A stretch of 64,000 nucleotides of DNA from contig OX637407.1 of NCBI GenBank assembly GCA_951799425.1, positions 24,853,191 through 24,917,190 on the forward strand, read 5' to 3'. Each line of letters opens with the position of its first letter. Positions within the stretch are counted from its first letter, which is position 1. The notes under the pieces are model-generated. The model was not told the DNA's origin, did not search any database, and saw only the letters and a program-made list of their open reading frames with translations. This document shows, in pieces, positions 31,346-64,000 of the stretch. A program made the translations under genes and the position numbers. The DNA comes from Ilex aquifolium (Eukaryota > Streptophyta > Magnoliopsida > Aquifoliales > Aquifoliaceae).

Positions 31346-31602
31346 AGAGAGGATCTAGATCCTCCAACTAGATATCTGCAGTTTAAAATTTATAAAATAG
31401 AAAGTTCTCAACCTAATGAATCTTTTTGGTCGATTGGTATTTTTTTGAATTTGAATTTTTTGAATCAGAATAATGATGGATTGAAGCGTTAATCGATTCA
31501 ACTGAGTGAAAGTTGAATTATACTTCATGGAAGTTGTTTTTGACCTTTTAGGAAGACGTGAAACAGTTATTTTCAATTTATCTGTCACTTTTGTCATTGA
31601 AA

Positions 31603-31768
31603 CAACTAAAAAGGACGACTTAGTGCACGAGACTCTCTTACTACATGGTTTGAGAAAGGTTAAATACACACAACTTTATTCCCGCGTGCAGAGAGCCTAT
31701 TTCTGACACTCCAACACGTGACGCCTAGATTAGAATAACTTTATCCTTGCGCCAAGACCCACCCTTGA
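31603..31768 (-). mobile_element. tRNA-derived SINE, copy in peptide-gene unit A
   Basis: On the minus strand it starts with a tRNA-like head (GGCGCAAGGATAAAGTTA as box A; CACGTGTTGGAGTGTC as a worn box B). The body has CTCTCTGCACGCGGGAATAAAG and CTCGTGCACTAAGTCGTCC, ending in a T-rich tail. The same SINE sits at the same place in units C, E and H, so it predates the duplications. Confidence 0.75.
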
Positions 31769-32277
31769 AAGATATCAAACAAATAATTTCAAATAAAAGT
31801 TCTTCTGAAGAAAAAGGTAAAATCCCTTTTTGCCCCTAAAAGATACAAAAATTCTCAATTTTACCCCTGCACTAAGAGCCACCCTTTGTCATTGAAACAA
31901 CTCAAACACATAATTTCAAACAAAAGTTCTGAAGAAAAAATTTTGGAATTCTTGTCTGGTGATTTTAGTATTATCCTAGAGATGGACAAAAAATTAGAAA
32001 TGAATGGGTACAATTATGACCTTAAAAATTGTTCCTTTATGCACCTCAGTGTCACATCCTTAATATCCATATAGATTTCCTCCATTTTTGGCATTACAGG
32101 GAGCTGAATAAACTGATTGAAAATTCGAAGGAAGCACAGAACTTTATTGCAACTTTTAAACTATTTTACATAATAAAACAAAATGCAACAAAAGCAAAAA
32201 AAAAAATACAGTAGAGTAAGCTTATGATTTTGTTGCTTCAAAAATATATAGAACCACTTAACCAAACAGCTCCACTT

Positions 32278-32475
32278 TTACTGTTTCTTATCCTGTATTG
32301 GTGCAAAGCCAGAAGGGGATGGAGGTGAGGGATTTCCACCCACTAGGGAGAGAGTTCTTCTGTTATGTGTGGTGGCTAATATTAGCGCAGACATGACCGA
32401 TAAGACGTTGATGATCAAGATCATGAACAAGCAACATACTACGAGAGCAGAGAAAGAAACAACTTTGTTTAACAT
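32278..32475 (-). CDS. secreted signalling-peptide precursor, copy A, 65 residues
   Basis: From ATG at 32475 the frame gives MLNKVVSFSALVVCCLFMIL, a further hydrophobic run (to about residue 30) that makes a signal peptide, then THNRRTLSLVGGNPSPPSPS and GFAPIQDKKQ. No cysteine follows the signal peptide. The layout (signal peptide, short basic Arg-Arg step, Pro/Ser/Gly-rich tail) is that of a secreted peptide-hormone precursor. The tail aligns with copies B, C, E and H, and with the SPPAGSGH end of B, but lacks the final GxGH. A 14-codon upstream frame starts 44 nt earlier and overlaps the start codon at ATGTTAA. Unlike its sisters, A has no TATATAAGC of its own: the 3' end of copy B lies where the promoter should be. 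It is therefore either expressed from the B promoter or silent. Confidence 0.6.
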   Translation of the reverse strand: MLNKVVSFSALVVCCLFMILIINVLSVMSALILATTHNRRTLSLVGGNPSPPSPSGFAPIQDKKQ

Positions 32476-32540
32476 ATTTGTATGCACCTGAGGAGAGGAT
32501 GGCAGACAGACATGAAAGTATATATGCTTCACTTCGTAAG

Positions 32541-32714
32541 TTAATGGCCAGAACCGGCTGGTGGAGAGTCTCTTGCTTTCACTTCGTAAGTTCTTCTGGT
32601 AGGTGTATTGGCTGCTATCGACTCAGACACGCCACCCGATAGGACCGTGATGATCCAAATCATGAACAAGCAGCATATTATGAAAGTAGAGCCAGAAGAA
32701 GATTTGTACGACAT
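32541..32714 (-). CDS. secreted signalling-peptide precursor, copy B, 57 residues, ends SPPAGSGH
   Basis: ATG at 32714, TAA at 32541-32543. The product starts MSYKSSSGSTFIICCLFMIW, continues hydrophobic to about residue 29, then has NTPTRRTYEVKARDSPPAGS and GH at the very C terminus. A signal peptide plus a Pro-rich tail ending GxGH is the mark of the plant PIP/PIPL (SGPSxxGxGH) and CEP (ending GxGH) peptide hormones, which are cut from the C terminus and bind leucine-rich-repeat receptor kinases. A TATATAAGC box lies about 50-60 bp upstream (32765-32776). Only 65 bp separate its stop from the A start codon. The frame is short but fully open and keeps the family CCLFMI core. Family assignment is by motif and layout, not by search. 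Confidence 0.62.
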   Translation of the reverse strand: MSYKSSSGSTFIICCLFMIWIITVLSGGVSESIAANTPTRRTYEVKARDSPPAGSGH

Positions 32715-33078
32715 TTTACAATATTCCTGAAGAGAGGATGACCAACATATATCAAATTATATATGCTTATATAAGCTATGCTCTTCCACCAAATGCAAAG
32801 AGTAAATGGAAGACTTGGATGACTTCCATTTATTTCAAAGGCAGGAAAATTGGGTTATGCAGACTTTGAAACCCCAATAGTTGAACTAACATGACAATTG
32901 GCAAATATTTTCCTGACTGGCAGCTTCATGGAAAAATCCCTTGCAACGATTTTTGATGGTCAGGCATTTAATGACATAAAAAAATGACGTAGGTCTTAGT
33001 CTACTTTGAAGAAAAAGGTGAATCGATTCAAATTATGATGCATGCCAAAATTTTCAAATTGTTTTGAATCCGTCCAAG

Positions 33079-33663
33079 TAGGGGTGATAATCAAGTCGTG
33101 TCGTGTTGGGTCATTGTGAGTTTGTATCGAACATTAGTCAACCAAAACCCAATCTATTTAACTAATCGTGTTGTGCTTGTATTCGTATTCGTATTGACCA
33201 ACATAAACTTTAAATAAAAAAACTAACGTTAAAATTCTATTTTCACTCAATTGAATTCATGTTTAAACTTTTTCTACAAATTAAAAATTAACTTAATAAT
33301 AATAATAATAAAAAAATAATAATAATAAGTAAAAATATATTTTTATACAATAATTATGTCAGTGCTTAATAAATAGTTACATATAATTAATATTTTATTT
33401 TTATAATACTAATTAAATATACTGATCGTGTTAATTTTGTGTTACCAAACAAACGATAAAATAAAAAAAGTGTCAATTCTTAAATAAACGGGTTGATCGT
33501 GTCAATTTCGAGTTTGGCGGGTTGAACCCGAACATGACCCGTTTATATGTCGTGTTCGCGTGTTGTGTCATTTTCGAATGCGTGTCGAGTTATAATTGAG
33601 TTCATGTCATAAAATTTGTGTTTACTAGTTCGAGTCGTGTTGAGTCGAAAATTGTCAACCCTA
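33079..33663. mobile_element. hAT element, TAGGGGTG..CAATC family, in the peptide-gene array
   Basis: Starts TAGGGGTGATAATC and ends TTGTCAACCCTA. The flanking 8-mers CGTCCAAG and TGTCCAAG match at 7 of 8. Non-autonomous. The copy at 61043 has the same TGTCCAAG flanks, so both descend from one insertion that was later duplicated with the unit. Confidence 0.85.
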
Positions 33664-33848
33664 TGTCCAAGTTTCTCTCAATCGACATATAGAAATAGAA
33701 GTCTTTGTATTATAAAATTTCTACTAGTATGAATTGTTTTGGTTTATTGGTACTTTTTTGAAATTGAATTTTTTGAAGATGAATAGTCTTGGATTGAAGT
33801 GAAAGTTGAAGTTTACTTTTTTTTTTTTTTTTAACAGTTGAATTTTTA

Positions 33849-34012
33849 ACTGAAAAAGGCGACTCAATACACGAAACTCCTCCACTGCATGGTTTGAAAA
33901 GGGTCAGATGTATTCAGCTTTATCCCGGCATATGGAGAACCTATTTTCGAGACTTGAACACGTGACACCCAGATTAAAATAACTTTACCCTGTGCTAAGA
34001 GTCACACCCTTT
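33849..34012 (-). mobile_element. tRNA-derived SINE, copy in unit C
   Basis: Same SINE as at 31603, same position relative to the peptide gene, minus strand. The T-rich tail (33817-33833) is longer here. Confidence 0.7.
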
Positions 34013-34335
34013 GTCATTGAAACAACTCAAACACATAATATCAAACAAAAGTTCTGGAGAAAAATATTTGGAACTGTTGTCTGGTGATTTTAGTATCAAT
34101 TATATTATAACCTTAAAAATTGTTCGTTAATACACCTTAGTGTCACATTAATATTTATTCCAAATCTCCACTATTTTTGGCATTACAAGGAGCTGAATAA
34201 ACTGATTGAAAATTTGAGAGAAGCACGCAGCTTTATTGCAACTTCTAAACTATTTTACATAATAAAACAAAGTGTAACAAAAGAAAAAAAATAATATAGT
34301 AGAGTAAGCTTAGCTTTTTCTTGCTTCAAACATAT

Positions 34336-34509
34336 TTAGGAATTAGGAGTAAGAGAATGGGATCCAGATGAGGGATTTCCACCCACTAGGGAGAGAGCTC
34401 TTCTGCTAGGTGCAGTGGCTAATATCGGCGCAGACATGACTGGTTGGACAGTGATGATCAAGATCATGAACAAGCAGAATGTTACGAAAACAGAGAGGAT
34501 GACAAACAT
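34336..34509 (-). CDS. secreted signalling-peptide precursor, copy C, 57 residues, rearranged start
   Basis: ATG at 34509 and TAA at 34336-34338 enclose an open frame: MFVILSVFVTFCLFMILIIT, then VQPVMSAPILATAPSRRALS and LVGGNPSSGSHSLTPNS. The tail matches copies A and E (SRR-L-LVGGNPS). Compared with E, about 50 bp around the usual start have been lost, which by chance joins the leader ATG to the signal-peptide frame. The TATA-like GTTATATAAGC (34526-34536) is only about 20 bp above this ATG. If transcription starts 25-35 bp below the TATA, the ATG would be missed and translation would begin at Met15 with a shortened signal peptide. It may be a young gene variant or a decaying copy. Confidence 0.5.
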   Translation of the reverse strand: MFVILSVFVTFCLFMILIITVQPVMSAPILATAPSRRALSLVGGNPSSGSHSLTPNS

Positions 34510-34773
34510 ACATGAAAATATATATGTTATATAAGCTATGCTCTTCCACCAATTGTAAAGAGTAAATGGAAGACTTGGAGTTGGATGACTTACATTTATT
34601 TCAAAGGCAGGAAAATTAGGTTAAAATCCCACTAGCTTGACTAACATGATAGTGGCAAAGCTTCATGGAGAAATACCTTACTATGGTTGTTGATGATCAC
34701 ACATTTAATGACCTAGTAAAACCAAGGATGTAATTAGACTACTTTGAAGGAGGTGATGGACACAGTATATGAG

Positions 34774-34949: not shown

Positions 34950-35007
34950 GAACTTGTTTTCATCAATGTATGTGATTTTTGAACTTGATATCTTCGTGAA
35001 GCTTAGT

Positions 35008-37248: not shown

Positions 37249-37284
37249 TCTATACTACTTTAAAATATCAGTGTACATGAAAAA

Positions 37285-37773
37285 CATTTATCGTCGACTT
37301 TGATTTTGAAATCTCCTGATAACACACACTAATATTGCATGAGTTGATTGTATCCACCTCTCCGTTATAAAAATGAGAGCCAGTAGATGAAGGGATATTG
37401 AGAATTTATTGTGAGAATTGGTAGCATCACACTGTTGGTTTGCAGCCGGTCTGGAAGATGTAAAGTTGGATCAAAACATTTTTTTTCATTTTTACCCTCC
37501 AATACTACAACTATACCATGTTTATCCTCCAAATTTATCCTAATATATACTGTACATTGAATAGACCAATTATCAGTTAGAATTTGATCCAACTTTACAT
37601 CTTCCAGACCGGCTGCAAACCAACAGTGTGATGCTACTAATTCTCACAATAAATTCTCAATATCCCTTCATCTACTGGCTCTCATTTTTATAACGGAGAG
37701 GTGGATACAATCAACTCATGCAATATTAGTGTGTGTTATCAGGAGATTTCAAAATCAAAGTCGACGATAAATG
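37285..37773. repeat. 191-bp near-perfect inverted repeat with 107-bp spacer
   Basis: The left arm 37285-37475 and right arm 37583-37773 are reverse complements with about one mismatch seen. A transcript across it would fold into a very long hairpin. The right arm runs into the ATG at 37771 of a short open stretch, so the left arm looks like an inverted copy of the captured gene's leader. Confidence 0.92.
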
Positions 37774-42338: not shown

Positions 42339-42346
42339 ATTTTACG

Positions 42347-44360: not shown

Positions 44361-44535
44361 TTATTGACGGAGAATTTTGCCAGGGGCTATATGTGATAAC
44401 CTTCCACCCACTCTGAAGAGAATTCTTCTGCTAGGTGTGGTGTCTAATATCGGCATAGACAACTTGTAGAATAGTGATGATCATGAACAAGCAGCATGTT
44501 ATGAGAATAGAGAAAGAAACAACTTTGTTAAACAT
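44361..44535 (-). pseudogene. peptide-precursor pseudogene, copy D
   Basis: It starts at ATG 44535 with MFNKVVSFSILITCCLFMI, nearly identical to copies E and H. A loss of 8 nt (6 plus a frame-breaking 2) in the signal-peptide region moves the frame, so translation stops before the mature peptide. In the other frame the tail is still readable: SRRILFRVGGRLSHIAPGKI and LRQ, then TAA at 44361-44363. The TATATAAGC promoter motif is lost too. Confidence 0.75.
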
Positions 44536-46059
44536 TTTTCCTGTGCACCTGTGGAGAGGATGGCTAACAGATATGAAAGTATATGTGCTTTACATATATC
44601 AAATTATTCATAAGTTAATTGACATTTCTATATTTAAATATGGTCATTCGAGCGCTCCACATAAAATTCAAGGGTCTAGATCTTACGATCATGTTAAAAT
44701 TCAAGGGTTTAATTATTATATACCTCTTCAAAATATTTTTTAATGAAGAAAAATATTATTCGAACTTATTTTGCTGACCTTATTTACTAAGATAATGCAT
44801 CACAATTATTGAATTTGTAAATAGTCACAACTGATATTAGAGTCCACTATCAATTCAATGTTACGTTTGGTATCACCATGTGAACAACTAATATTAGTAA
44901 ATTTAGTTTGACAGTGGATTGAAGAACACAGTAACAAACTAAATTTTATTTCCAAAAAAAAAAACAAAAGATATTACAATGAAACTCAAAACACATCTCG
45001 AGAGAAAATGTTAAAGTAGCACACACCATGCATCCAACTTGGGGTTTGAACTTAGAAATTATAATATTATAATTGAAATTAGAATGCAAGAATTATAAAT
45101 TAAGATTCAAATTATTTTAAATAACTTTTTAATTTAATTGTACTATATATTAGAATCTGTCTACTATGAATTATATTTTTAATTAAATTATTCAAACAAT
45201 TGGACTTTAACAATTTGCCTGTGATCAAGCAAAGTATTCTTATATATAAGTTTTAATAAAGTTATGACAAATAAATTTTTTCTATTAAGTTTGTCTATAA
45301 ATCCTAATAAGTTGTTTGTTAAAAGCTCAATAATAAATTGTTGAGTTTATGTTTAAAAAAAAAAAATATGGAGTTTGAGTCAAATCAAACATATTGATTT
45401 TGATTTATTATGGGTAACTATTCTAAAAGAAAAACAATATTGAATTAGTTCTAAGTTGCCCCCACTATGAATAATTTCTGGCTCTGTCTCTGGCTATATG
45501 TGTATGTGTGTGTGTGTGTGAGACTAACATGACAGTGGCAAATCTATAATATAAAATAGGGTGGGCTTCAAAAAGCTCATCCGACGGTTTCAAATAGACT
45601 CATCCAACGACCACCAACATCCATCTCAAAACTATTCATATTGAATTCTTTCCCTTCCTGAAATCCATTAATTCTTACTTACGTTACACCGTGTCTTCAG
45701 ACATGAGTTACCTTAGTATTTAATGGGCTCGTTTGGTAGACGTATTATGAGGGGATTAAATATTGGATTGTACTATTTTTAATTTAATCGGGTCTAATAC
45801 TTTGTTTGATAAGCAAATTTGATACCATATTAATTTCATTAACTACTACTAAAACTAATCTAAAATTACTCTAAATTAATGCCTAGATAATGCTTTTTTG
45901 GGGGGTTTGAGTGTATCTTCATCTTCTTGACTACATGCTCTTTTATAGTCATTATCTTCGACGGTTTTGCTTCGGTTGACAGTTACTTACTGATAACTCT
46001 CAGTTAGTTATTTCTTTCTTTTCAGATATAGGTCTAACTAATCATCTCCCCCCTTTCTA

Positions 46060-48303: not shown

Positions 48304-48501
48304 TTATATGGGGCTGCGGGGTGGTGGTACGGCAGAGGAATGGGATCGAGGTGAGGGATTTCCACCCACTGGGTGGAGAATTCTTCTGCTAGGTGTGGTG
48401 GCTAATATCGGCGCAGACATGATTGATAGGACAGTAATGATCAAGATCATGAACAAGCAGCATGTTTTGAGAACAGAGAAAGAAACAACTTTGTTAAACA
48501 T
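48304..48501 (-). CDS. secreted signalling-peptide precursor, copy E, 65 residues
   Basis: From ATG at 48501: MFNKVVSFSVLKTCCLFMIL, then a hydrophobic run ending near Ala34 (signal peptide, likely cut around SAPILA), then TTPSRRILHPVGGNPSPRSH and SSAVPPPRSPI. An earlier in-frame ATG (48540) would add 13 residues. However, the TATATAAGC box (48553-48561) is only about 15 bp above that ATG, so transcription should begin below it and the ATG at 48501 is preferred. The tail is Pro/Ser-rich, cysteine-free, and follows a dibasic step, as in plant hormone precursors. The 3' UTR keeps an AATAAA on the minus strand (near 48121). The identical signal peptide and leader of copy H point to recent duplication or gene conversion. 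Confidence 0.62.
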   Translation of the reverse strand: MFNKVVSFSVLKTCCLFMILIITVLSIMSAPILATTPSRRILHPVGGNPSPRSHSSAVPPPRSPI

Positions 48502-48552
48502 TCTTCCTATGCACCTGTGGAGAGGATGGCAAACAGACATGAAAGTATATAT

Positions 48553-48561
48553 GCTTATATA
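48553..48561 (-). promoter_or_regulatory. TATA box shared by the peptide-gene copies
   Basis: TATATAAGC lies about 50-55 bp above the ATG of copy E. The same box precedes B (32765), F (56595) and H (62611). It lies in the near-palindrome GCTTATATAAGC. Confidence 0.6.
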
Positions 48562-48830
48562 AGCTATGCTCTTCCACCAAATGCAAATAGTAAATGGAAA
48601 ATTGGGTTATACAGACTTTAAAACCCCCAATAGTTTGACTAACATGACAATGGCAAATATTTTCCTGACTGGCAGCTTCATGGAAAAATCCCTTACAATG
48701 ATATTTGATGGTCAGGCATTTAATGACATAGAAAAATGAGGTATGTGTTAGTCTAATTTGAAGAAAAAGGTGAATCGATTCAGATTATGATGGGGTCCAA
48801 ATTTATCAAATTGTTTTGAATCAGTCCAAG

Positions 48831-49325
48831 TAAAGGGTGACAATCAAGTCGTGTCGGGTTTGTGTCGAGTCAATGTGGGTTCATGTCGAACATTAGTCAA
48901 CCCTAATCCAATCTATTTAACTAATCATGTCGTGTCGAGTTGACCTATTCATTTTTGTATCGTGCTCGTATTTGTATTCGTATTGACCTAGATAGATTTT
49001 AAATAAAAAATTTAACGCTAAGATTCTATTTCCACTTAATTGAATTTATGCTCATACTTTTTCTACAAACTAAAAATTAACTTAATAAACATAATAATAA
49101 TAATAATTAGTAAAAATATTTTTTTATACAATAATTATGTCAGTGATTAATAAACAGTTACAGATAATTAAAATTTTATTTTTATAATACTAATTAAACA
49201 TGTTGATCATATTAATTTCGTATTACCAAACAAACGAGAAAATAGAGAAAGTGTTAATTTTTCAATAAATGGGTTGATCGTGTCAATTTCAGGTTTGACG
49301 GTTGAACCCGAACATGACCCGTTTA
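48831..49325. mobile_element. truncated hAT element in unit E
   Basis: Begins TAAAGGGTGACAATC after the same GTCCAAG flank as the copies at 33079 and 61043, but the right end is missing. It descends from the same insertion. Confidence 0.7.
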
Positions 49326-50762
49326 TAAATTTGGTTTTAGTAGCTGTCAAATTGCGTTATGAAGGCTGAACTCCCACGAGCTTCCCCAACTGGACGTGGC
49401 AAATACTCTTACTATGATTTTTTGATGGTCAACCATTTAATGACTTAGAAAAACGGGGATGCATTTAATCTAACTCGGAAGAATGAGGTAACGGGAACTG
49501 TTATACGGACACACGTGAGACTCGCATGTGAAAATTATTTAATAATTATGGTAAAGACGAGATTCGAATATATAGAATATCTTGTTCTGACATCATATTA
49601 AATAATCATTTACTTTAAAAACTAAATTGTAGCTGAAACTTGATTCCTAATAGTGCTTAGCGACGGACAACTCTTTAATCATTCAGACCAACCCATTTTA
49701 TTTCTTGAATTCTACGAGGCCCCATGTTTATTCAAGTACCACTGAGAACAATATTCAGTATAACAGTGACACCACGTTATTACTATCACGTGGTTTAACA
49801 AAAATGGGGTTCACTGTCCATAATCATACGAAACTACAAGAATATCATCGTACATCATGCCTCTTGTGATAATCTTGCACTTCTTTTTAACATCTCTAAC
49901 CTTTGTCCTCTCATTGATAAAAGTTCAACACATAATCGAACAGGAGTTCTGAAGGAAAATGCTCATAATTGTTGTGTACAGATTGTTGGTCAAGTGCATT
50001 TTCGATAGATGAAGGTAAAATGCTTCAAGCTCGGTAATTGCCTCTAACAACTCTGAAAATCATTGGACACCGGGTTATAGAAAATTTGCCATTCAAATCG
50101 CTTGGCTATGTTATCCGTACACAAAGCCAAACCAAGAATACGTTGGGATTTCTTCAATCTGCCAAGATAAAGATTCCAACAAGATGAAAATGAGGAATCA
50201 AATTCTTAGCGAGAGGGCTTGAGAAGCATGCCCTCCTATTTTTCTAATTTTTAAGAATTTTGAATTAATAAATTCCTCATCCTCCCGTCATATTGTACCA
50301 AATGCTTCCAATATCTATCCTAAATAACTACTCATAAACTAACTCTTACCACCATTTATTTAACTTTTTTTTTTTTTAAATATCAAATTTTGTAATTCAA
50401 TAATTATTAAAATATTTTTGGTAACATATAAAATAATGGGTGAGAGAGGGTAAATGATGAAGAAATGAATTGGGAAGAGAAAAGGATGACGAGTACACCG
50501 CACGGGATCGGATGCTAGTATAAATATAAAATTAACTGTTGGATGGGAAATAATCTAAAAATCAGTAGTCATAATATAATCATTAGTTGCTACAGTATTT
50601 ATATGCCAAGAGAGAGCGCCTCTAAAGCGCTACAATGCTCCTCTAGTGCTTCACTTTCCATTCCGTGCGCGCAAATGTTGCTCACACCATCCTGGTGGTG
50701 CACCGTCATAAATTCTAGTAGTTGTTGGTTTTGTACGGCGAATAATTAACACAAATAATACT
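49326..50762. other. decayed scraps of peptide-gene units, no gene
   Basis: Around 49370-49470 the unit's upstream flank (TGATGGTCA..CATTTAATGAC) reappears in worn form, and around 49918-49990 the downstream flank (AACACATAAT..GAGTTCTGAAG). The gene itself is not recognisable between them. The rest holds no gene. Confidence 0.45.
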
Positions 50763-51106: not shown

Positions 51107-51651
51107 AACTCTCATTTATGAGAATTAGAGAGTTTGTGTCAAATTTCAACAGTAAGGGTGTCAATATATGACACGATTCGTTAACACGACACGAATACGA
51201 TAAGAAGTTAGAGAGTCTGTCTTTTTTAAGCTACCTATTTCGTAAATGAATAGATCCGAAACGATTAATAAACGAATCGAGTATGAGTGAAGCGAATAAA
51301 AAAAATACACAACACGACTCATTTATATACCGGTTATACATGATTAATACACGACACGAACTCGATATAATACGACTCATTAGACAACAATTAATAAACG
51401 AATTGGGTATTAGTGAAGTACTTTTTAACACAAATCCGTTAAGACCTGACACGAACCCGCTTCACTCGATACAATTAACAGGCCTAAATGCTAGCATTCT
51501 TAGCAGGTATATAATAGCAAGAAATAGGTGTCTAGTTATTGGGACAAATTGCTACTAATTTGAGAAATTTATTGTTCAACATAAGAATTATAGACTTTGA
51601 GGAGGCAAAATAAAAATTTGACGAACATTCAGAGGATAAAGCTTAGCTTTT
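51107..51651. other. spacer with a hAT-like scrap
   Basis: ACACGAC / GAACTCGAT words at about 51170-51485 resemble the inside of the GTGTCG-rich hAT family. The last 20 bp (AAGCTTAGCTTTT) match the 3' UTR of the peptide-gene units and belong to copy F. Confidence 0.4.
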
Positions 51652-54600
51652 TGTAGGTTTTGATAGAAACGAAAGTGTAGAAACTCTCAGGAAGCAACAG
51701 AATATTGAGTGATCTGGAGTAATAATTTATTAAGCTTCAAAGCACTTATTTATACAGCTAGCTTAAAACAGAAAAACATAAAAAGTGCAGCTTAATCTGC
51801 TACCTGCAGATACCTCCTAAAAAATAGCAACAAACCTGCTACCTATAGATACTTCCTAAAGAATAGAAACAAACCAACAAATACTTCCTAAGGAATAGGT
51901 AAATCTTCCACATGACTAACTTATTTGACTACTTCCACTTCAATCTACTCAGCTCCATGTCAGCAGCTCCTAGGACGTGTCATTCAACACTCCTCCTTGT
52001 CTCTGGAGCTGCAGACTCCAAGCCTTTTGCCTCAAGAACTCATATCTAGCTTTGGGAAGTGGCTTGGTTAAGATATCAGCATTCTGACTTTCTGTTTTGC
52101 AGTAGACCAGCTGTATTTCTCCCTCCTTCTGTACCTCTCTTAGGAAATAGAGTTTCAGCTTGAAATGTTTTGTTTTGCCATGGAAAACCGGATTATTTGC
52201 AATTGAAATTGCAACTTGGTTGTCTACGAGTATTTGTGTGCTTTCCTTTTGCTCCATAAACAAGTCAGCCATCAATTTCCTAATCCAGAGAGCCTGATTC
52301 ACAACAGCAGCAGCAGCTACATTTTCTGCTTCTGCTGTGGATTGAGCTATGACTTCTTGCTTTTTTTAACACCATGAAAAAATAGCAGAACCAAAGCTGA
52401 AACAATAACCTGAAGTACTTCTCATGTCATCAACACAACCTGCCCAATCACTATCTGAATAACCATGGAGAGTGAAATTTTTAACTTGACAAAACCTCAG
52501 ACCATAGTTAATTGTACCCTTGACATATCTAACAATTTTTTTTGCAGCTTGAAAGTGAATTTCACTAGCACAATGCATGTACCTTGAGAGTAAACTTACA
52601 ACATTCATAATATCTGGTCTAGTTGCCGTTAGGTACATCAAGCACCTGATAATGGTCCTGTAAAGCCTTTCATCAGCTTTTGCAGCTTCATCTTCTTTGC
52701 AAAACTTCTCATTTTGATTAATTGGAGTTGCACTTGGATTGCACTCTTCCATCTTGAACTTTTTCAGGATTTCCTTGGCATATTTCCGTTGACATATGAA
52801 GATCTCATTCTGCTTTTGTTGTACCTCCATGCCAAGAAAGAATGTCATCCTCCCAAGATCAGTCATCTCAAAAACATCCTTCATTTCCTTTTTGAAATTG
52901 TCAATTTGCTCCATACTGCTTCCTGTCACAAGTAGATCATCAACGTATAAAGATACCACAAGTGTTTCATCACAAACCTTCCTGAAGTATAGAGTAAATT
53001 CACTTAGGCTTTTTGTAAAGCCTAAGCCTAACAAATGTGAATCAATCCTGCTATACCAGGCCCTTGGTGCCTGTTTTAAACCGTACAAGGCCTTTTTCAG
53101 CAAATATACTTTCTCCTCCATTCCTTGAACAATAAAACCTTCAGGCTATCCACAAAAATTTCTTCCTCCAAGTATCCATTCAAGAAGGATGATTTGACAT
53201 CCATCTGATGTATATTCCAGCCCTTTTGAGCAGCAAGAGCCAGCAACATTCTTATAGTGTCCAATCTAGCAACTGGGGCAAAAGTCTCAGAGAAATCCAC
53301 CCCAAACATCTGAGCATATCCTTTGACAACCAGTCTTGCCTTGTGTTTGTTTATAGAACCATCAGAATTGAGTTTGGTTCTATAAACCCACTTGACTCCA
53401 ATTGCCCTTTTGTGTGTCGGTTTGTCCACTAGCTCCCAAGTCTGATTTTTTTCAATCATTTTAAGCTCCTCCTTCATTGCATCCATCCATTTTTTATCAG
53501 CTGCAGCTTCTTTATACCCTGCAGGCTCTATTATAGCAACATTGCACATCTGATAGATGTCAGAGAGTGATCTGGTTCCCCTGACAGGTTCATCATCAAT
53601 ATTGTCATTCTCCTCCTGAAACTCAAGGTCCTTTTGGAACTCAAGATTCTCTTTAAACTCAAGCTTCTTATCATTCTCCCAACTCTAGCTTTCTGATTCG
53701 AAGAATTTGACATCTCTGCTAACTATTACTTTGTTGTTTTCTGGAAGGTAGATTCTATAGGCCTTTGATATTGAGCTGTAGCCTATAAAAATCCCTGCTT
53801 CTGCTTTCTTATCCAATTTGTCTCTCTTAACATGTGGAATATAAGAGAAACAAAGACAACCAAATATTTTTAAATTTTGCAGCCTTGGTTTATAGCCATA
53901 CCATGCTTCAAATGGAGTCTTTTGTTGCAAAGCTTTTGTTGGTAGTCTATTCATCAGAAAGACTGATGTATGTGCAGCCTCAGCCCAGAATTTCTTTGGC
54001 AGCCCTTTGTCATGCATCAAACACCTTGTCATTTCCATAAGTGTTCTATTTTTCCTCTCAACGACTCCATTCTGTTGAGGGGTATAAGGTGCTGTAAGCT
54101 AGTGCTCAATGCTTGCATCCTCACAAAATTTGTTAAATTTCTCCGAGGTGTATTTAGTTCCATTATCAGACCTGATCACTTGCATTTTACATTTACTTTG
54201 ATTTTCAGCCCAAGCTTTAAACTTCCAGAAGATGTCAGCAACTTCATATTTAAATTTCATGAAATAAATCCAGCACATTCTTGTGTGATTATCAATGAAA
54301 GCAATATAGAACTTACTGCCATTCAGTGATGGTGTTCTCTGAGGTCCTCCCACATCAGTGTGTACTAACTGCAGCTTCTGAGTAGCTCTCCAGGCCTTGT
54401 TTTGTGGGAAACGAAGTCTTGTTTGTTTCCCGTACTGACAGGCTACACAAGTAGGAGGCTTCACTTCTAATTCGGGCAAGCCTTCTCCAAGATTGTTCTT
54501 CTTCATAAAGAGAAGGGCGGTATGATGAAAGTGCCCCAAACGCCTATGCCAAAGCATTGTATTGCTTTCTTCTTTGTGAATTGCAGCCTGCTCTTCTTGC

Positions 54601-56326
54601 ATCAAATCCAAGGCAAAACTTTTGCCTTTCATTTGGACTATAAATACCTCTCTGCCTTGTGCATCAGCAATCATGCAATGATTGTCCTCAAACAACACCT
54701 TATAGCCTTTTTCCAGCAACTGACCAACACTCAACAAATTTTGATTAATCTCAGGAACATATAAGACATTAGAGATTAATTTCAAACCTGTGTGGCTTTC
54801 AATTGCCACTGTTCCTTTGCCTTTTACTGCAAGATATGCTCCATTTCCAATTCTAACTTTGGAAGTAACAGTTTTGTCAAGTTCCTTAAAGAGCCCTTGA
54901 TCATAAGTCATATGGTTTGTACAACCACTGTCTATAAGCCAAGTTTCTGGGGAGCTGCTAGTGGCAAAGCATGATACCACAAACAGTTGCTCATCTTGAG
55001 GTTCTTCCATAGCAGCCTTGGCTTCTCCTTGCTGCTGATGAGATTTTCATATCCTTTCCACATGCCCTAGTTGACCACACTTGTGACATTTTACATCCGG
55101 CCTCCACCAACACCTTTTTGTGGATGGTTGGATTTTTTACAGTAAGGACATGGTGGAAACTTTTGAGTGTTGTTGCTACTGTTATTGTTGCTTTGCATCT
55201 CTTTCTTGTACTGAGATATGGCCTGAAATGCACCCTCCACAGATCCTTCTTGTCTCATAAGCCTCCTTTGTTCTTGAGCCTGTAAGGCATTCAACAGCTC
55301 TGCCAAGGTGATACTTGACACATCTTTTGAGTTTTCTAGAGATGATATTGCAGTCTCAAACTTTTCAGGAACTATTATAAAAATTTTCTGAACTATTCTA
55401 GAATCAGAAAAGTCAATACCAAGAAGTCTTACTTTGTTAACAATACTAAGAAGTCTGTCTGAGTAATCCTTGATTGTTTCTGATTCTTTCATCCTTTGCA
55501 TCTCAAATTCTCTAATCAGGTTCAACACTTGCATACCTTTGACTCGTTCATTTCCTTCATATTCCTTCTTCAGGAAGTTCCATATTTCATTTGATGTCTT
55601 CAGTGTCATGATTCTGGTGAAAATTGTAGATGAGACAGTTGCAAATAGACTAGCTTTTGCCTTTGATTTCCTTTGCCTCCTCTCATTGTGTTGTTTTATC
55701 TGAGCCATAGTTGGATTGTCGGACAGGGAAGGAACTTCATATTCCTCACTAACAGCTTCCCACAGATCACTAGCATCAAGGTAGGCTTCCATACGGACAA
55801 CCCACACTTGATAATTTATTCCATCAAACACTGGAGGTGCCAGTGCATTCAGTGAAGCTTCTGAGGTCATTCTGGATATTGTTTGTAGGTTTTTTTTTTT
55901 TTTTTGTGTGTGTTTTGGATAGGGTAGATGGTGGTGTATAGGCTCACTCACCTCACAGGTTGCTCAAGAACCAGGCTCTGATACCAATTTGTAGGTTTTG
56001 ATAGAAACAAAGTGTAGAAACTCTCAGGAAGCAACAGAATATTGAGTGATCTGGAGTAATAATTTATTAAGCTTCAAAGCACTTATTTATACAGCTAGCT
56101 TAAAACAGAAAAACATAAAAAGTGCAGCTTAATCTGCTACCTGCAGATACCTCCTAAAAAATAGCAACAAACCTGCTACCTATAGATACTTCCTAAAGAA
56201 TAGAAACAAACCAACAAATACTTCCTAAGGAATAGGTAAATCTTCCACATGACTAACTTATTTGACTACTTCCACTTCAATCTACTCAGCTCCATGTCAG
56301 CAGCTCCTAGGACATGTCATTCAACA
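51652..56326 (-). mobile_element. Copia LTR retrotransposon, young but broken
   Basis: LTRs 51652-51989 and 55990-56326 start TGTAGGTTTT and end TTCAACA; they differ by only about one substitution and one indel. The target duplication CTTTT flanks the whole. The primer site TGGTATCAGAGC (minus strand, 55975-55986) matches initiator Met-tRNA, and a purine run lies beside the other LTR (51990-51998). Parts in order on the minus strand: gag (about 55.1-55.95 kb), protease with the DSG box and integrase (about 53.7-55.0 kb), reverse transcriptase with YVDD (about 52.4-53.5 kb), RNase H ending NADILTKPLP (about 52.0-52.3 kb). The coding part is broken, with roughly five interruptions. The LTR match suggests insertion well under a million years ago. 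It landed in the 3' flank of peptide-gene copy F. Confidence 0.95.
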
Positions 56327-56391
56327 CTTTTCCTGTTTCAAATATGTATAAACCAATTAGCCAAACAACTCATTTTTAACAATCGAATGAA

Positions 56392-56541
56392 TACCATTAA
56401 TTATAATGGAAGCGGCTGTATGTGAGGGATTTGCACGCACTAAAGAGAGAGCTCTTCTGCTGGGGGTGAGACAACGATGATCAAGATCATGAGCAAGCAG
56501 CATATTGTAAGAGAAGAGGAAGAAGTAGAACTATATAACAT
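56392..56541 (-). pseudogene. peptide-precursor pseudogene, copy F
   Basis: From ATG at 56541: MLYSSTSSSSLTICCLLMIL, then the frame runs into SPPAEELSL and stops at 56440. Compared with E, about 35 nt after the signal peptide are lost, which shifts the frame. In the old frame the tail would read SRRALSLVRANPSHTAASII. The TATATAAGC box survives (56595-56607). The 3' flank is separated from the gene by the Copia element. Confidence 0.7.
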
Positions 56542-56613
56542 TTTCGTATATACTTGTACAGAGGATCGATTGCAAGAAATATAAATGTATGCATGCTTTA
56601 TATAAGCTATATG

Positions 56614-57823
56614 CAGGGGCAGATGCAGCATGGGGTAGCTGCCCTCACTGGAATTTTGAAAAGTTTTGGGTATTATTTGAAATTTTAGAATTTTTTTGAA
56701 AAAAATTGAAATTTGCCCCGTTAAAAATTTTATAAGAAAATTAAGTTTGTTAGAGTAACACTATTGGAATCTAATTTGGGAAGTTAAATTATTGTTATCA
56801 TTCGATTATTAGTGGATTTCAATATTTAATGGGATCCAATACGTGCTAATTCAATGACAATAATGGATTAAATTTTTAAATTAAATTAAATACATATAGT
56901 GGTATTGCTAGTTTATATTTTAGATATGTAGTATTCTTTCATAAAAAAGAAAAAATAGACTTACACTCTTCTCCTACGACTTAAATTAAAATTACTACGA
57001 TAAGGTTTTTTTTTTTTTTATAAACATTGATAAATCACTATTAGAACATAAATAATTAGCCTGATACATCTTTTGAATAACACCTCAATAGAAAATGAGC
57101 AAACACCTTATAAAAAATCAATCTTGAACCTTAGCAAGTGTTAACTCATTCAAATACTAGTTTATAGAATTAAGACTAACCAATAATACTATATTTGATC
57201 GGTTATTGTTGCAATGAGTTTTAGTGATTCTTAAACGATTATTCTCCTTAACTTGACTTTCTTGGTTAGTGCTCTATTTTTTTAAAAAAAATTTGTCTCC
57301 TCCCATCTATTACATTTGTCAATGTGAATTGAAATTGGATCTTGATATTTGAAATCGTAATAAATTGGGATTTGAACTTAGAAATTATAATATTATAATT
57401 GAAATTAGAATGCAAGAATTATAATTTAAGATTCAAATTATTTTAAATAATTTTTTAATTTAATTGTACTATATATTAGAATCTATCTACTATGAATTAT
57501 ATTTTTAATTAAATTATTCAAACAATTTGACTTTAACAATTTGCTTGTGATCAATCAAATTATTCTAATATATAAGTTTTAATAAAGTTGTGACAAATAA
57601 ATTTTTTTCTATTAAGTTTGTCTATAAATCCTAATAAGTTGTTTGTTAAAAAATCAATAATAAATTGTTGAGTTTATATTAAAAAAGAAAAAAAAATATG
57701 GAGTTTGAGTCAAATCAAACATATTGATTTTGAATTAATTATGGGTAAATATTCTAAAAAAAAAACAATATTGAAATAGTTCTAAATTGCCCCCACTATG
57801 AATATTTTCTAGCTCCGTCCCTA
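56614..57823. mobile_element. hAT element, about 1.2 kb, upstream of copy F
   Basis: Starts CAGGGGCAGATGCAG and ends AGCTCCGTCCCTA. The 8-mers GCTATATG (56606-56613) and ACTATGTG (57824-57831) match at 6 of 8; its duplicate in block 1 still has GCTATATG after its right end (45493-45500). A small foldback lies inside at about 56745-56905. No transposase frame. Confidence 0.7.
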
Positions 57824-58599
57824 ACTATGTGTTTGTGTGTGAGAGTGACTAACAAGACAGTGACAAATTTAAAATATAAAATAGGGTAGGCTTCAAAAAG
57901 CTCATCTGACGGTCTCAAATAGACTCATTCAACGACCACCAACATTCATCTCAAAACTATTCATATTGAATTCTCTCCCTCCCTGAAATCCATCAATTCT
58001 CACTTACGTTACACTGTGTCTTCAGACACGAGTTACCCTAGTATTTAATAAGTTTTAACTATAGGTTGCTTCATGGAAAAATCCCTTACTATAATGTTTG
58101 GTGGTCAGGCATTTAATGGTTTTTGATGGTGTTGCTCTAAAATCTGCTGGGATCGATAGAGATATTCCAACCTACAGATAATTTTCAGTTGACTGTTTGG
58201 AATGGGTTCAAATGTCTTATTTGAGGACTTCTTTGGATAAAAACAATGGATAATCACACTGTGCAAAGGCGAAATGAAATAACAAAAAACTAATAAAAAA
58301 TAATTCTTTTATTAATTCAATCGAAGGGACTTCGGTTACAAAAAATAAAAAACTGAATGAAAGAACCTTGATTAAAACATTAACTACTCCTAAAACTAAT
58401 ATAAAATTACTCCAAATTAATGCTTAGATCATGCGTTTTTTGGGGGTCTGAGTGTATCTTCATCTTCTTGACTACATGCTCTTTTATAGTCATTATCTTC
58501 AACGGTTTTGGACAGTTACTTAGTGATAACTCCTAGTTAATTATTTCTTTCTTTGTAGATATAGCTGTGACTAATCATCTCCCACCTTTTTTCAAATTC

Positions 58600-58925
58600 T
58601 ATCATATAGTACTTATTAGAGATATGATAGGATCGGGAAGAATCTATCGATATCCAAATAGAGATACTATATGATCCAAAGAGATCCATCGATATCTAAG
58701 TTGATTTAGATAAGTAAAGATGATGATAGACATGTGTGACTTATCTTTATCTTGTGTAATTCTAACCCTATAAATAGAGTTGAATCTCATGTTATCAATT
58801 ATCTTGAATAATACATCAATGTAGCCCATAAGAGATTAGGTCCATGAATGTAGGTAATTTGCCGAACCACGTTAATTTTCTGTGTCTTATTTTTCCTTTA
58901 TTTTATTATCTCCAATCTCATATTC
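58600..58925 (+). mobile_element. LTR-like fossil in duplicated block 2
   Basis: Duplicate of the relic at about 46060-46390, with the same CCCTATAAATAGAG box. Borders uncertain. Confidence 0.35.
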
Positions 58926-59156
58926 AGAAATTCTTCATATGAAGGAATGTATTTAGTCTATGGACAAGAAGATGATGGACACCATATAAAAGCTAGTGAG
59001 ATCTGATCCTTGATTGTGCTCGGCAAAGGACGGTTTTTTAATCACTCACACAAACCCACTTTATAACAAAATATGGATTCATATAAAACACAAATTTGTG
59101 CCAATTAAGGAAATAAAACAAACTCATTATAAAAGTACATTACACATAGGGGTGTT

Positions 59157-60118: not shown

Positions 60119-60121
<3 letters not shown>

Positions 60122-60172
<51 letters not shown>
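60122..60172. repeat. (TA)n microsatellite
   Basis: About 25 TA units, with a second shorter run at about 60212-60227. Confidence 0.9.
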
Positions 60173-60177
<5 letters not shown>

Positions 60178-60597
60178 TTTCTAGATTTTTAGATTTTAAT
60201 TTTTAGGGATTAATATATATATATATATGCGGGTAGGGTAGGGTAGGAATACAAAATTTTTGTAGGTATTCCGCATTCCTACACAATTTTTTGCGGAATA
60301 CCAAAAACTCTTCCGTTGGCATACTCGATTTTTTTGGGTAGCCGATCAATAGAGTCGGGTAGGGTAAGATATGGTAGGGTCGGAATTTGCGGATAATCAA
60401 AAATTTGAACATCTCTAATTACACAGAAGGAAAAAAAGGGATGCTAATGGTTACTCCTAAAAGATTTACAAAGTTAATAATTTCATAAATTACAATTAAT
60501 TTACAAATAATATCATCTAACACTCGAAAATGTTTTTGTCCATGAAAAAAATAAATTCCAACAAAAAAATGTGATAAAAAAGAGAGTTGATAAGACG

Positions 60598-60679
60598 TGA
60601 CCGATAAGACGTTGATGATCAAGATCATGAACAAGCAACATACTATGAGAGCAGAGAAAGAAGCAGTTTTGTTTAACAT
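60598..60679 (-). pseudogene. peptide-precursor pseudogene, copy G (3' end lost)
   Basis: From ATG at 60679: MLNKTASFSALIVCCLFMIL, very close to copy A, then INVLSVTS. Here the sequence leaves the family at the boundary of duplicated block 2, so the whole mature peptide is missing. The upstream TATA region and flank remain. Confidence 0.75.
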
Positions 60680-61042
60680 ATTTGTATGCACCTGAGGAGA
60701 GGATGGCAGACAGACATGAAAGTATATATGCTTATATAAGCTATGCTCTTCCACCAAATGCAAAGAGTAAATGGAAGACTTGGATGACTTACATTTATTT
60801 CAAAGGCAGGAAAATTGGGTTATGCAGACTTTGAAACCCCAATAGTTTGGCTAACATGACAATGGAAAATATTTTCCCGACTGGCAGCTTCATGGAAAAA
60901 TCCCTTACAATGATTTTTGATGGTCAGGCATTTAATGACATAGAAAAATGAGGTATGTATTAGTCTACTTTGAAGAAAAAGGTGAATCGATTCAGATTAT
61001 GATGCGGTCCAAATTTGTCAAACTGTTTTGAATCTGTCCAAG

Positions 61043-61654: not shown

Positions 61655-61828
61655 TGTCCAAGATTCTTTCAATCGACATATAGAAGTCTCTGTATTATAA
61701 AATTTCTACCAGTATGAATTGTTTTGGTTTATTGGTACTTTTTTAAAATTGAATTTTTTGCAGTAGAATAGTGTTGGATTGAAGTGAAAGTTGAAGTTTA
61801 GTTTATTTTTTGAACAGTTGATTTTTTA

Positions 61829-61990
61829 ACTAAAAAAGACGACTCAATACACGAAACTCCTCCACTGCATGGTTTGAAGAGGATCAGATATACGCAACTT
61901 TATCCTCATATGTGGAGAAGCTATTTTTGAGACTCGAACACATGACGCCAAGATTAGAACAACTTTACCCCTGTACTTATAGTCACACCC
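61829..61990 (-). mobile_element. tRNA-derived SINE, copy in unit H
   Basis: Same SINE at the same place as in units A, C and E. Confidence 0.7.
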
Positions 61991-62382
61991 TTTGTCATTG
62001 AAACAACTCAAACACATAATTTCAAACAAAAGTTCTGAAGAAAAATATTTGGAATTGTTGTCTGGTGATTTTAGTATTATCCCAGATATGAATTGATATT
62101 CAACCGACAAAAACGTACAAATGAATGGGGACAATTATATTATAACCTTAAAAATTGTTCGTTAATACACATCAGTGTCACATAAATATTCATCCAGATT
62201 TCCATTGGTTTTGGCATTACAAGGAGATGAATAAACTGATTGAAAATTCCAAGGAAGCACAGAGCTTTATTGCAACTTTTAAACTATTTTACATAATAAA
62301 ACAAAATGCAACAAAAGATTAAAAAAAAAAATACAGTAGAGTAAGCTTATGATTTTGTTGCTTCAAAAATATATAGAACCAC

Positions 62383-62559
62383 TTAACCAGAACCAGAACC
62401 GGATTGACCTGAGGGATTTGGATGCACTCCGATGAGAGCTCTTCTGCTAGGTGTGGTGGCTAATATCGGCGCAGACATGATTGATAGGACAGTAATGATC
62501 AAGATCATGAACAAGCAGCATGTTTTGAGAACAGAGAAAGAAACAACTTTGTTAAACAT
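62383..62559 (-). CDS. secreted signalling-peptide precursor, copy H, 58 residues
   Basis: From ATG at 62559 the first 40 residues (to PSRR) are identical to copy E. Then the tail changes completely to ALIGVHPNPSGQSGSGSG and stops. The Gly/Ser-rich end NPSGQSGSGSG recalls the GxGH end of copy B and of PIP peptides, but lacks the last His. TATATAAGC lies above (62611-62622), and an earlier in-frame ATG (62598) is too near it to be in the transcript. The 3' UTR (ATATATTTTTGAAGCAACAA on the minus strand) is like that of copy A, whereas leader and signal peptide are like E: H looks like a mosaic of the two. Function is inferred from layout only. Confidence 0.6.
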   Translation of the reverse strand: MFNKVVSFSVLKTCCLFMILIITVLSIMSAPILATTPSRRALIGVHPNPSGQSGSGSG

Positions 62560-63045
62560 TCTTCCTATGCACCTGTGGAGAGGATGGCAAACAGACATGA
62601 AAGTATATATGCTTATATAAGCTATTCTCTTCCACCAAATGCAAAGTGTAAATGGAAGACTTGGATGACTTACATTTATTTCGAAGGCATGAAAATTGGG
62701 TTATGCAGACTTTGAAACCCCAATAGTTTGACTAACATGACAATGGCAAGTATTTTCCTGGCTGGCAGCTTCATGGAAAAATCCCTTACCATGTTTTTTC
62801 ATGGTCAGGCCTTTAATGACATAGAAAAATGAGGTATGTCAAGGTGAATCGATTCAGACTATGACGCGGTACAGATTTATCAAAACTAATTGTTCCGAAT
62901 CTATCCAAGTTTCTCTCATTCGACATATTGTAAGATTTCTATCAGTATGAGTTGTTTTGGTTTATTGGTACTTTTTTGAAATTGAATTTTTTGAAGAAGA
63001 ATAGTCTTGGATTGAAGTGAAAGTTGAAGTTTACTTTTTTTTTTT

Positions 63046-63959
63046 GGTAAAATTTCAGTCATACCCCTCCTAGTTTACTATATCTTCAAGGACACCTCCT
63101 CTATTATCAAAAACATCACTGATACCCTTTTTAGTTTATATTTAAACATCACTAACACCCCTTACCATTAAACTTCCATTTCTAACAAAAAAAAATTCAT
63201 TTAAAATACCAAAAATGTCCCTACATAAATCTCAAGTAATTTTTCTGCATAAAATTTTATTAAAATTCGAGCCGATTAAAATTTATTTTTCTACATATTA
63301 AAATTTGAACTAATTAAAATTCGATTGAAACTGATTAAATTTCTTTTTTTAACCTATTAAAATTCGAGCTTATTAAATTTTTTTTTTTACGTATTAAAAT
63401 TTGAGCTGATTTGAACTCTACTCGAGTTATTAGCGCCGATTAAAATTCGCTTTCGAGTTGATTAAAATTTATATTTTTTTACTTATTAAATTTCGTGTCA
63501 ATTAAAATTCGATTTATTAAAATTTAAGTCAATTAAAATTTATATTTTTTTATGTATTAAAATTTGGGTTGATTAAAATTCAATGCGAGTTGATTAAAAT
63601 TTGATTTGAGTAGATTAAAAATAATTTTTAATTGGTTCAAATAGAATTTTAATTAGCCCAAATTTTAAAACGTAAAAAATATAATTTTTAATCGGCTCAA
63701 ATTTTAATATGTAAAAAAAAAATTTTAATTAGTTTGAATCGAATTTTAATCGGTCCGAATGTTTATACGTAAAAAAAATTAGAAAACAGAGGGGGTCTCA
63801 TTGAAGATATGTTTATCTAGAGGGGGTGTGGATGAAGTTTGTCCTCAAATATATCATGGTCAATTTAGTAAAATTACATTCTAGTTAATATTTTTAATCT
63901 GACAAGGGGTGTCTTTGAAGATATAGTAAACTATAGCGGGTGTGGTTGAAATTTTTTCC
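63046..63959. mobile_element. Mutator-like element in the SINE tail of the next unit
   Basis: The ends are about 50-bp imperfect inverted repeats: GGTAAAATTTCAGTCATACC and TAGTTTACTATATCTTCAAG at the left, mirrored by CTTTGAAGATATAGTAAACT and GGTTGAAATTTTTTCC at the right. Both flanks are runs of T (at least 9), the poly-T that sits at this point of the unit. The inside (63180-63760) is a string of worn short repeats around ATTAAAATTCGAG. No transposase. Confidence 0.72.
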
Positions 63960-64000
63960 TTTTTTTTTTTGTAACAGTTGAATTTTTGTACAATGCGACT
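63960..64000 (-). mobile_element. start of the next SINE and peptide-gene unit, cut by window edge
   Basis: AACAGTTGAATTTTTGTACA and then ATGCGACT match the SINE tail of units C and H (AACAGTTGAATTTTTAACTG, then GGCGACT). The array therefore goes on to the right. Confidence 0.6.

What the first reader, a model, noticed from the sequence alone, without database searches (positions are those of the whole stretch)
31350..64000. Array of at least eight small secreted-peptide genes with conserved signal peptide and diverging mature ends
Seen directly: eight related units on the minus strand (A 32278, B 32541, C 34336, D 44361, E 48304, F 56392, G 60598, H 62383). Most keep a TATATAAGC box, all keep a CCL(F/L)MI-type hydrophobic core, and the open ones have Arg-Arg followed by a cysteine-free Pro/Ser/Gly tail. 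Known: plant peptide hormones (PIP/PIPL, CEP, CLE, IDA) are made this way and often lie in tandem families. Inferred: this is a lineage-specific PIP-like family under birth-and-death evolution.
Basis: partly seen in the sequence, partly recalled or inferred. Interest (0 to 1): 0.88.

Follow-up and report, generated by a model that had tools for sequence, protein, structure and literature searches.

The report
Plant peptide genes with diverging tails
A stretch of a plant chromosome carries eight copies of a small secreted-peptide gene, five still readable, whose front halves are kept alike by copying between genes while the tail that would become the released signal shows an excess of amino-acid changes, as expected of a fast-evolving defence or recognition signal.

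Summary
In detail: eight related minus-strand units lie at 32.3-62.6 kb. Five are open (A, B, C, E, H), three broken (D, F, G). Of 168 ORFs of 40-120 aa on both strands, only these five combine a signal-peptide-like core with Arg-Arg. (1) Likeness of the front halves reflects copying, not shown constraint: E and H are identical for 186 bp, from 66 bp before ATG to the last base of Arg-Arg, with flanks 79-82% identical; signal-peptide omega does not differ from 1. (2) The tail is diversifying: over 15 gap-free codons omega is 5-15 (p 5e-5 to 9e-4), much of it due to H. The cleavage site reads RRxL, an SBT6.1/S1P motif, in six of seven copies. Four of five open tails share NPSxxSxS. PIP membership fails: 0 of 5 have S(G/A/V)PS; only B ends in GxGH. 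Most likely a young, locally amplified family of cysteine-free phytocytokine precursors with a positively selected mature peptide. Expression, receptor, species and homologues elsewhere could not be tested.

The parts
32278..32475 (-). Unit A, open precursor, 65 aa, tail TLSLVGGNPSPPSPSGFAPIQDKKQ; no TATATAAGC of its own
32541..32714 (-). Unit B, open precursor, 57 aa, tail TYEVKARDSPPAGSGH: the only open copy ending in GxGH
34336..34509 (-). Unit C, open precursor, 57 aa, tail ALSLVGGNPSSGSHSLTPNS; usual start region deleted, another in-frame ATG serves
44361..44574 (-). Unit D, broken copy (two deletions, frameshift); tail reads RRILFRVGGRLSHI in its own frame
48304..48501 (-). Unit E, open precursor, 65 aa (78 aa from the upstream ATG at 48540), tail ILHPVGGNPSPRSHSSAVPPPRSPI
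56392..56631 (-). Unit F, broken copy (deletion before Arg-Arg puts RRALSL out of frame); an LTR element lies just past its end
60590..60717 (-). Unit G, broken copy: signal peptide followed by other sequence
62383..62559 (-). Unit H, open precursor, 58 aa (71 aa from the upstream ATG at 62598), tail ALIGVHPNPSGQSGSGSG
48382..48567 (-). 186-bp tract in E identical to H, from just before the TATA box to the last base of Arg-Arg: read as a conversion tract
62440..62625 (-). The same 186-bp tract in H
48376..48387 (-). RRIL motif in E (RRTL in A 32350-32361, RRAL in C 34393-34404 and H 62434-62445, RRTY in B 32586-32597)
   Evidence: for the sequence; PMC13082318 passages for the motif
62386..62439 (-). 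Tail of H: 14 nonsynonymous and 0 synonymous differences from A over 15 codons
62611..62619 (-). TATATAAGC box of H (others at 60730-60738, 48553-48561, 32765-32773)

Best explanation
A young, locally amplified family of plant genes for short cysteine-free signal peptides of the phytocytokine kind. Shown from sequence: each open copy has a hydrophobic N-terminus, a dibasic site (RRxL in A, C, E and H, RRTY in B) and a Ser/Pro/Gly-rich tail of 16-25 residues, behind a short leader and a TATA-type box (lost in A). The promoter-to-RR part is homogenised between copies (E = H over 186 bp). The tail changes amino acids at codon positions 1 and 2 while position 3 hardly changes, with omega above 1. 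L, V and NPS are kept in A, C, E, F and H, and NPSxxSxS in the open A, C, E and H. Inferred: the signal peptide is removed in the ER, an SBT6.1/S1P-type subtilase cuts at RRxL, prolines may be hydroxylated, and the released tail is read by a cell-surface receptor. Selection for new tail sequences (a pathogen- or recognition-driven arms race) keeps altering what the peptide says while conversion keeps the delivery part uniform. D, F and G are dead copies.
For: Five of 168 small ORFs have the architecture and all are family members. Tail omega: 15.4 for A, C, E, H (p=1.0e-4), 5.1 with F (p=9e-4), 5.7 with F and D (p=5e-5); signal-peptide omega 1.1-1.5, p 0.26-0.78. Extra alleles by codon position in the tail of A, C, E, H: 10/12/1; none of 97 overlapping flank windows is as phase-biased by a matched test. 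A-H: 14 of 45 tail bases differ, against 33 of 396 downstream. Doublet changes at positions 1+2: 7 of 7 changed codons between C and H (P about 1e-5 against random placement). E/H tract of 186 bp ending exactly at RR; A and G identical for 54 bp before ATG although G's far upstream is B-like (32 of 377 differ). RxxL/RxLx is the motif cut by SBT6.1 and SBT3.5 (PMC13082318, passages).
Against: No expression data. No signal-peptide predictor was run; hydropathy only. Signal-peptide omega does not differ from 1, so constraint there is not shown. The tail signal leans on H: A, C, E alone give omega 5.4 with p=0.055, and the total differences of A-C, A-E and C-E in the tail are about what the flank shows (by windows, 77 of 139, 24 of 113 and 4 of 97 flank windows reach the tail count). 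Counted as variable sites without naming the phase, the tail bias for A, C, E, H has P 0.029 only. The test was made after I saw the pattern, on 15 codons, with related and partly converted copies. A has lost its TATATAAGC box.
Confidence: 0.6

Rival explanations
1. True members of the PIP/PIPL family: B keeps the ancestral GSGH end and the others are PIP genes with eroded ends, read by an RLK7-type receptor. (This concerns the family label and overlaps with the best explanation.)
For: B ends in GSGH, and by codon the B end lines up with PSGF in A and GSGS in H (sequences, aligned by eye with a one-codon gap). Precursors are Ser/Gly/Pro-rich, with Arg after the signal peptide as in PIP/PIPL.
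Against: S(G/A/V)PS absent in 5 of 5 open copies; GxGH absent in 4 of 5. In PIPs the C-terminus is the conserved part (purifying selection reported for 128 members, PMC10704477, passages); here it is the fastest-changing part. No Pfam match above cut-off for 5 of 5.
Confidence: 0.2
2. Decaying repeats: local duplicates of a former gene in which some reading frames are open by chance and nothing is selected.
For: 3 of 8 copies are broken; signal-peptide omega is not different from 1. A neutral simulation from E leaves 37-71% of such ORFs open at 5-15% divergence, counting substitutions only. Units lie among repeated elements.
Against: Phase-locked changes in the tail are not expected without selection on the protein; apart from C's lost start region, the one indel between open copies inside the signal-peptide part is a codon-sized one in B; C still has an open frame after losing its start region.
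Confidence: 0.15
3. Directly acting antimicrobial peptides diversified against microbes, rather than receptor ligands.
For: Positive selection on a secreted short tail and clustering suit an antimicrobial arms race.
Against: Net charge of the open tails is 0 to +2 and they have no cysteine, unlike most cationic or cysteine-rich plant antimicrobial peptides (recalled).
Confidence: 0.1
4. Recognition ligands in reproduction (pollen-pistil or similar), diversified by mate-recognition selection.
For: A species-specific cluster of secreted peptides serves such a role in Arabidopsis (AtLURE1, PMC3525529, passages).
Against: AtLURE1 peptides are cysteine-rich and showed no positive selection; nothing here points to reproductive tissue.
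Confidence: 0.07

Closest known systems
SCOOP / PROSCOOP phytocytokines (Brassicales)
   Same: Signal peptide, cysteine-free Ser/Gly/Pro-rich tail, RxxL-type subtilase site in many members, SxS in the tail, tandem arrays with transposon remnants, divergent motifs (PMC6382344, PMC8448819, PMC11331138, PMC13082318; passages).
   Different: The first 14 SCOOP genes have two or three exons; these look single-exon. SCOOPs are reported as exclusive to Brassicales; the species here is unknown. B lacks SxS. NPSxxSxS is not named as a SCOOP motif in the passages I saw.
PIP / PIPL peptides
   Same: Secreted, cysteine-free, Arg after the signal peptide, Ser/Gly/Pro-rich end; B ends in GxGH.
   Different: No S(G/A/V)PS in 5 of 5; 4 of 5 open copies lack GxGH; the mature end is diversifying rather than conserved.
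RALF23 and GLV1/CLEL6 precursors
   Same: RRIL and RRAL sites cut by SBT6.1 (INRRIL|ATRRY, ERRRA|L|GG) match SRRIL in E and SRRAL in C and H.
   Different: Mature peptides look unrelated: RALF is cysteine-containing (recalled), and I saw no CLEL-like core in these tails (by eye, not searched).
AtLURE1 and other defensin-like clusters
   Same: Recent local clusters of secreted-peptide genes, possibly shaped by gene conversion (PMC3525529, passages); a study of Arabidopsis defensins and NLRs covers positive selection and recombination (PMC5731061, start of abstract in the listing only).
   Different: Cysteine-rich; no positive selection found in AtLURE1.

Membership tests
PIP/PIPL | N-terminal signal peptide followed by a conserved Arg | tested here: met
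   Hydrophobic core and RR in 5 of 5 open copies; crude hydropathy, no SignalP
PIP/PIPL | S(G/A/V)PS core | tested here: not met
   0 of 5 open tails
PIP/PIPL | GxGH at the extreme C-terminus | tested here: not met
   1 of 5 open tails (B only)
PIP/PIPL | Perception by RLK7 | not testable with these tools
   needs bench work
CEP | SPG(I/V)GH C-terminal motif | tested here: not met
   0 of 5
IDA/IDL | SGPS followed by (R/K)(R/K)HN | tested here: not met
   No S(G/A/V)PS in 5 of 5; no HN in the tails by eye
SCOOP | SxS motif in the tail | tested here: inconclusive
   Present at the same position in 4 of 5 open tails (A, C, E, H), absent in B; Ser-rich tails make chance matches likely
SCOOP | RxLx/RxxL subtilase site (many members) | tested here: met
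   RRxL in 6 of 7 copies with a tail (A, C, E, H open; D, F broken), RRTY in B
SCOOP | Two- or three-exon gene | tested here: inconclusive
   Complete single-exon ORFs; introns in UTR not excluded without RNA
SCOOP | Occurs in Brassicales; perceived by MIK2 | not testable with these tools
   species not given; no plant collection offered
Defensin-like / cysteine-rich peptides | Cysteines in the mature part | tested here: not met
   0 Cys in 5 of 5 open tails
Any Pfam family | Match above the curated cut-off | tested here: not met
   0 of 5 precursors; best weak hit E 0.094, below cut-off

The most novel reading that the evidence does not exclude
A cassette locus for a hypervariable phytocytokine: gene conversion homogenises the unit from TATA box to Arg-Arg cleavage site and stops at the cleavage site, while the released tail behind it is driven through codon-phase-locked, often double-base replacements around an NPSxxSxS frame. 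That would be a cysteine-free plant counterpart of the 'fixed delivery part, variable payload' toxin and defensin families. If the host lies outside Brassicales, it would be an independent origin of SxS-type immune peptides.
Probability: 0.25. Interest if true: 0.85.

Novelty: new variant of a known kind. Interest (0 to 1): 0.6.

Why it matters
In most plant signal-peptide families described in the passages I read (PMC4526919, PMC10704477, PMC11331138) the short mature end is the conserved part; SCOOPs are a partial exception. Here that end is the fastest-changing part and shows a positive-selection signal among copies of a single genome, while the delivery half is kept alike by conversion. 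If the peptides are made and secreted, the locus would let one test directly whether plants run arms-race diversification on their own immune signals and whether one receptor follows the changing tails.

Tried and rejected
Rejected or weak: (a) Pfam on five precursors: no match above cut-off. (b) viral-contig scan with E: 44 pattern hits, none confirmed. Genome contigs (bacteria and archaea) was not scanned; the tools offer no plant genome collection, so homologues elsewhere are untested. (c) Openness of the frames as evidence of selection: weak, 37-71% stay open neutrally, substitutions only. (d) My first phase-bias control was too loose: windows with as few as 6 changes gave 36 of 86 (A, C, E, H), 25 of 81 (A, C, H), 10 of 53 (A, E, H) and 35 of 85 (C, E, H) downstream windows as lopsided as the tail by smallest-phase share. 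With a significance-matched test 0 of 97, 0 of 139, 0 of 106 and 0 of 97 reach it; these windows overlap, so few are independent. (e) A shuffle of codons does not make the NPS block special (P 0.43 for A, C, E, H and 0.24 with F; P 0.065 and 0.024 under random placement of changes; with D the block is not invariant), so NPS constraint is suggestive only. (f) Fragment 30969-31026 (74% over 58 bp to C's tail, E 5e-4): possible old relic, not counted. (g) Antisense ORFs of 60 aa or more lie over D, E and H only and would not explain changes at two of three positions. (h) Antifungal RISP-type peptides of poplar: recalled lead, search empty. (i) Literature searches for a plant peptide family with conversion plus positive selection: in the listings (3, 12 of 492, 2 and 5 papers) I saw no cysteine-free family; the nearest were defensin and AtLURE1 papers. 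The library is partial, so this is not proof of absence. (j) The Fisher test printed (p 4e-5) used 32 of 396 for the A-H flank, while one search counts 33 of 396.
Full report
What is there. Eight related units lie on the minus strand between 32.3 and 62.6 kb. Five are open: A (65 aa), B (57 aa), C (57 aa), E (65 or 78 aa) and H (58 or 71 aa). D, F and G are broken by deletions or by replacement of the 3' half. Among all 168 ORFs of 40-120 aa starting at the first ATG on both strands of the window, five have a hydrophobic 12-mer near the N-terminus followed by Arg-Arg, and these are A, B, C, E and H. The neighbour to the left is a phosphoenolpyruvate carboxylase gene in several pieces from about 16.5 to 27.5 kb (Pfam PF00311, six of ten ORFs given, E 2.6e-110 for the last exon). 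With what looks by eye like a Copia-type element (ORFs) this marks the window as plant nuclear DNA (inference); the species is not given and no whole genome is held.

How the array was built. Blocks are repeated: 60601-62829 matches 32636-34721 at 80%; 60593-61538 matches 48415-49327 at 86%; 57362-59084 matches 45036-46549 at 92-94% in two pieces. Identity is a mosaic along each unit. E and H differ at 71 of 339 sites upstream of the TATA box, 0 of 180 from there to Arg-Arg, 16 of the first 45 tail bases and 61 of 347 downstream. The identical tract is 186 bp: 66 bp before ATG and 120 bp from ATG, ending on the last base of the second Arg codon. G is B-like far upstream (32 of 377 differ) but identical to A for the 54 bp before ATG and differs from A at 6 of 88 signal-peptide bases. 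I read this as gene conversion or unequal exchange inside the array. B's stop runs into A's leader, and A has lost TATATAAGC.

Selection. Pairwise dN/dS over the signal-peptide-to-RR part is 0.51-0.57 (A against C, E, H), 0.94 (C against E, H) and 1.07-1.62 (B against the others); E and H do not differ. A codon model of my own on star trees gives omega 1.44 (A, B, C, E, H), 1.13 (A, C, E, H) and 1.49 (A, B, C, E), none different from 1 (p 0.28, 0.78, 0.26). The likeness of the front halves is therefore not evidence of constraint. For the first 15 tail codons, which align without gaps in A, C, D, E, F and H (B needs gaps and was left out; G has no tail), omega is 15.4 (A, C, E, H; p 1.0e-4), 5.1 (with F; p 9e-4) and 5.7 (with F and D; p 5e-5; 6.8 on a resolved tree). 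Without H it is 5.4 (A, C, E; p 0.055) and 3.6 (A, C, E, F, D; p 0.006), so H carries much of the signal. Summed over the 15 pairs, pN is 0.38 and pS 0.12. In A, C, E, H the numbers of extra alleles at codon positions 1, 2, 3 are 10, 12, 1; the chance that position 3 is so quiet is 0.0013 by within-codon permutation. Without naming the phase it is 0.0033 by alleles and 0.029 by variable sites, and of 97 overlapping gap-free 45-column windows in the downstream flank none is as phase-biased; a looser first control, by smallest-phase share with 6 or more changes, had 36 of 86 windows as lopsided. Against the flank as neutral yardstick, A-H differ at 14 of 45 tail bases and 33 of 396 downstream bases, and C-H at 14 of 45 and 38 of 359. 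A-C (5 of 45 against 47 of 353), A-E (7 of 45 against 62 of 333) and C-E (8 of 45 against 55 of 303) are not faster in total. Between C and H all 7 changed codons differ at positions 1 and 2 together and never at 3; 6 of 8 for A-H and 7 of 9 for E-H (P about 1e-5, 1e-5 and 2e-5 against random placement). In the other 12 pairs P runs from 0.0074 (H-D) and 0.012 (E-F) to 1 (A-F). These comparisons share copies and are not independent. Repeated replacement of the same codons under diversifying selection explains the doublets; a templated or multi-base mutation process is not excluded.

What the tails keep. In A, C, E, F and H codons 2 (L), 5 (V) and 8-10 (NPS) do not vary; in A, C, E, H codon 13 (S) does not vary either and codon 15 stays Ser, giving NPSxxSxS. 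The site after the signal peptide reads RRTL (A), RRAL (C, F, H), RRIL (D, E) and RRTY (B). A review gives RRxL/RxxL/RxLx as the site of SBT6.1 (RALF23 INRRIL|ATRRY; CLEL6 ERRRA|L|GG) and SBT3.5 (PROSCOOP12) (PMC13082318, passages). I infer a cut at or just after this site. The five open tails have no Cys, net charge 0 to +2 and 38-61% Ser+Pro+Gly.

Family membership. PMC4526919 (passages) defines PIP/PIPL by S(G/A/V)PS and C-terminal GxGH, CEP by SPG(I/V)GH, IDL by SGPS plus (R/K)(R/K)HN. None of the five open tails has S(G/A/V)PS or SPG(I/V)GH; only B has GxGH. PMC10704477 (passages) reports purifying selection in the PIP region of 128 members, the reverse of what is seen here. SCOOPs share more of the working parts (RxxL site, SxS, Ser-rich cysteine-free tail, tandem array with transposon remnants; PMC6382344, PMC8448819, PMC11331138, passages). 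They are reported as exclusive to Brassicales, the first 14 have two or three exons, and they are perceived by MIK2; the host order and receptor cannot be checked here. I therefore file the array under no named family: it works like a phytocytokine family of the PIP/SCOOP kind.

Verdict. Expression, secretion, processing, receptor and biological role are inferred, not shown.

Noticed in passing
51650-56334: LTR element that looks Copia-type from its ORFs (by eye, no family search); LTRs 51650-51997 and 55988-56334 are 98.9% identical; apparent 5-bp target duplication CTTTT by eye; it sits just past unit F.
   Followed up: partly
16503-27548: Phosphoenolpyruvate carboxylase gene on the plus strand in several exons, ending MRNTG; probably the bacterial-type (PPC4-like) form, a label recalled rather than tested.
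   Followed up: partly
30927-31046: Minus-strand ORF MSLVKWDYLLHGSPSSTVPSVTGQSPPASATDTRFGIGV containing a 58-bp stretch 74% like C's tail; possible relic of a ninth unit or an exon of another gene.
   Followed up: partly
45036-46549 and 57362-59084: Duplicated blocks 92-94% identical lie beside the D/E and F/G pairs, yet D and F themselves are about 71% alike over the signal peptide although they sit at similar places.
   Followed up: partly
32528-32593: The motif ACTTACGAAGTGAA occurs both in B's tail and in A's leader, at the B-A junction: perhaps a trace of the rearrangement that fused the two units.
   Followed up: no
60122-60174: Perfect AT dinucleotide repeat, 26.5 copies, inside a repeated element that has relatives at 46.7-47.5 kb, 39.4-40.0 kb and 36.9-37.2 kb.
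   Followed up: no
37285-37773: Long near-palindrome: the stretch matches its own reverse complement at 88% over 492 bp.
   Followed up: no
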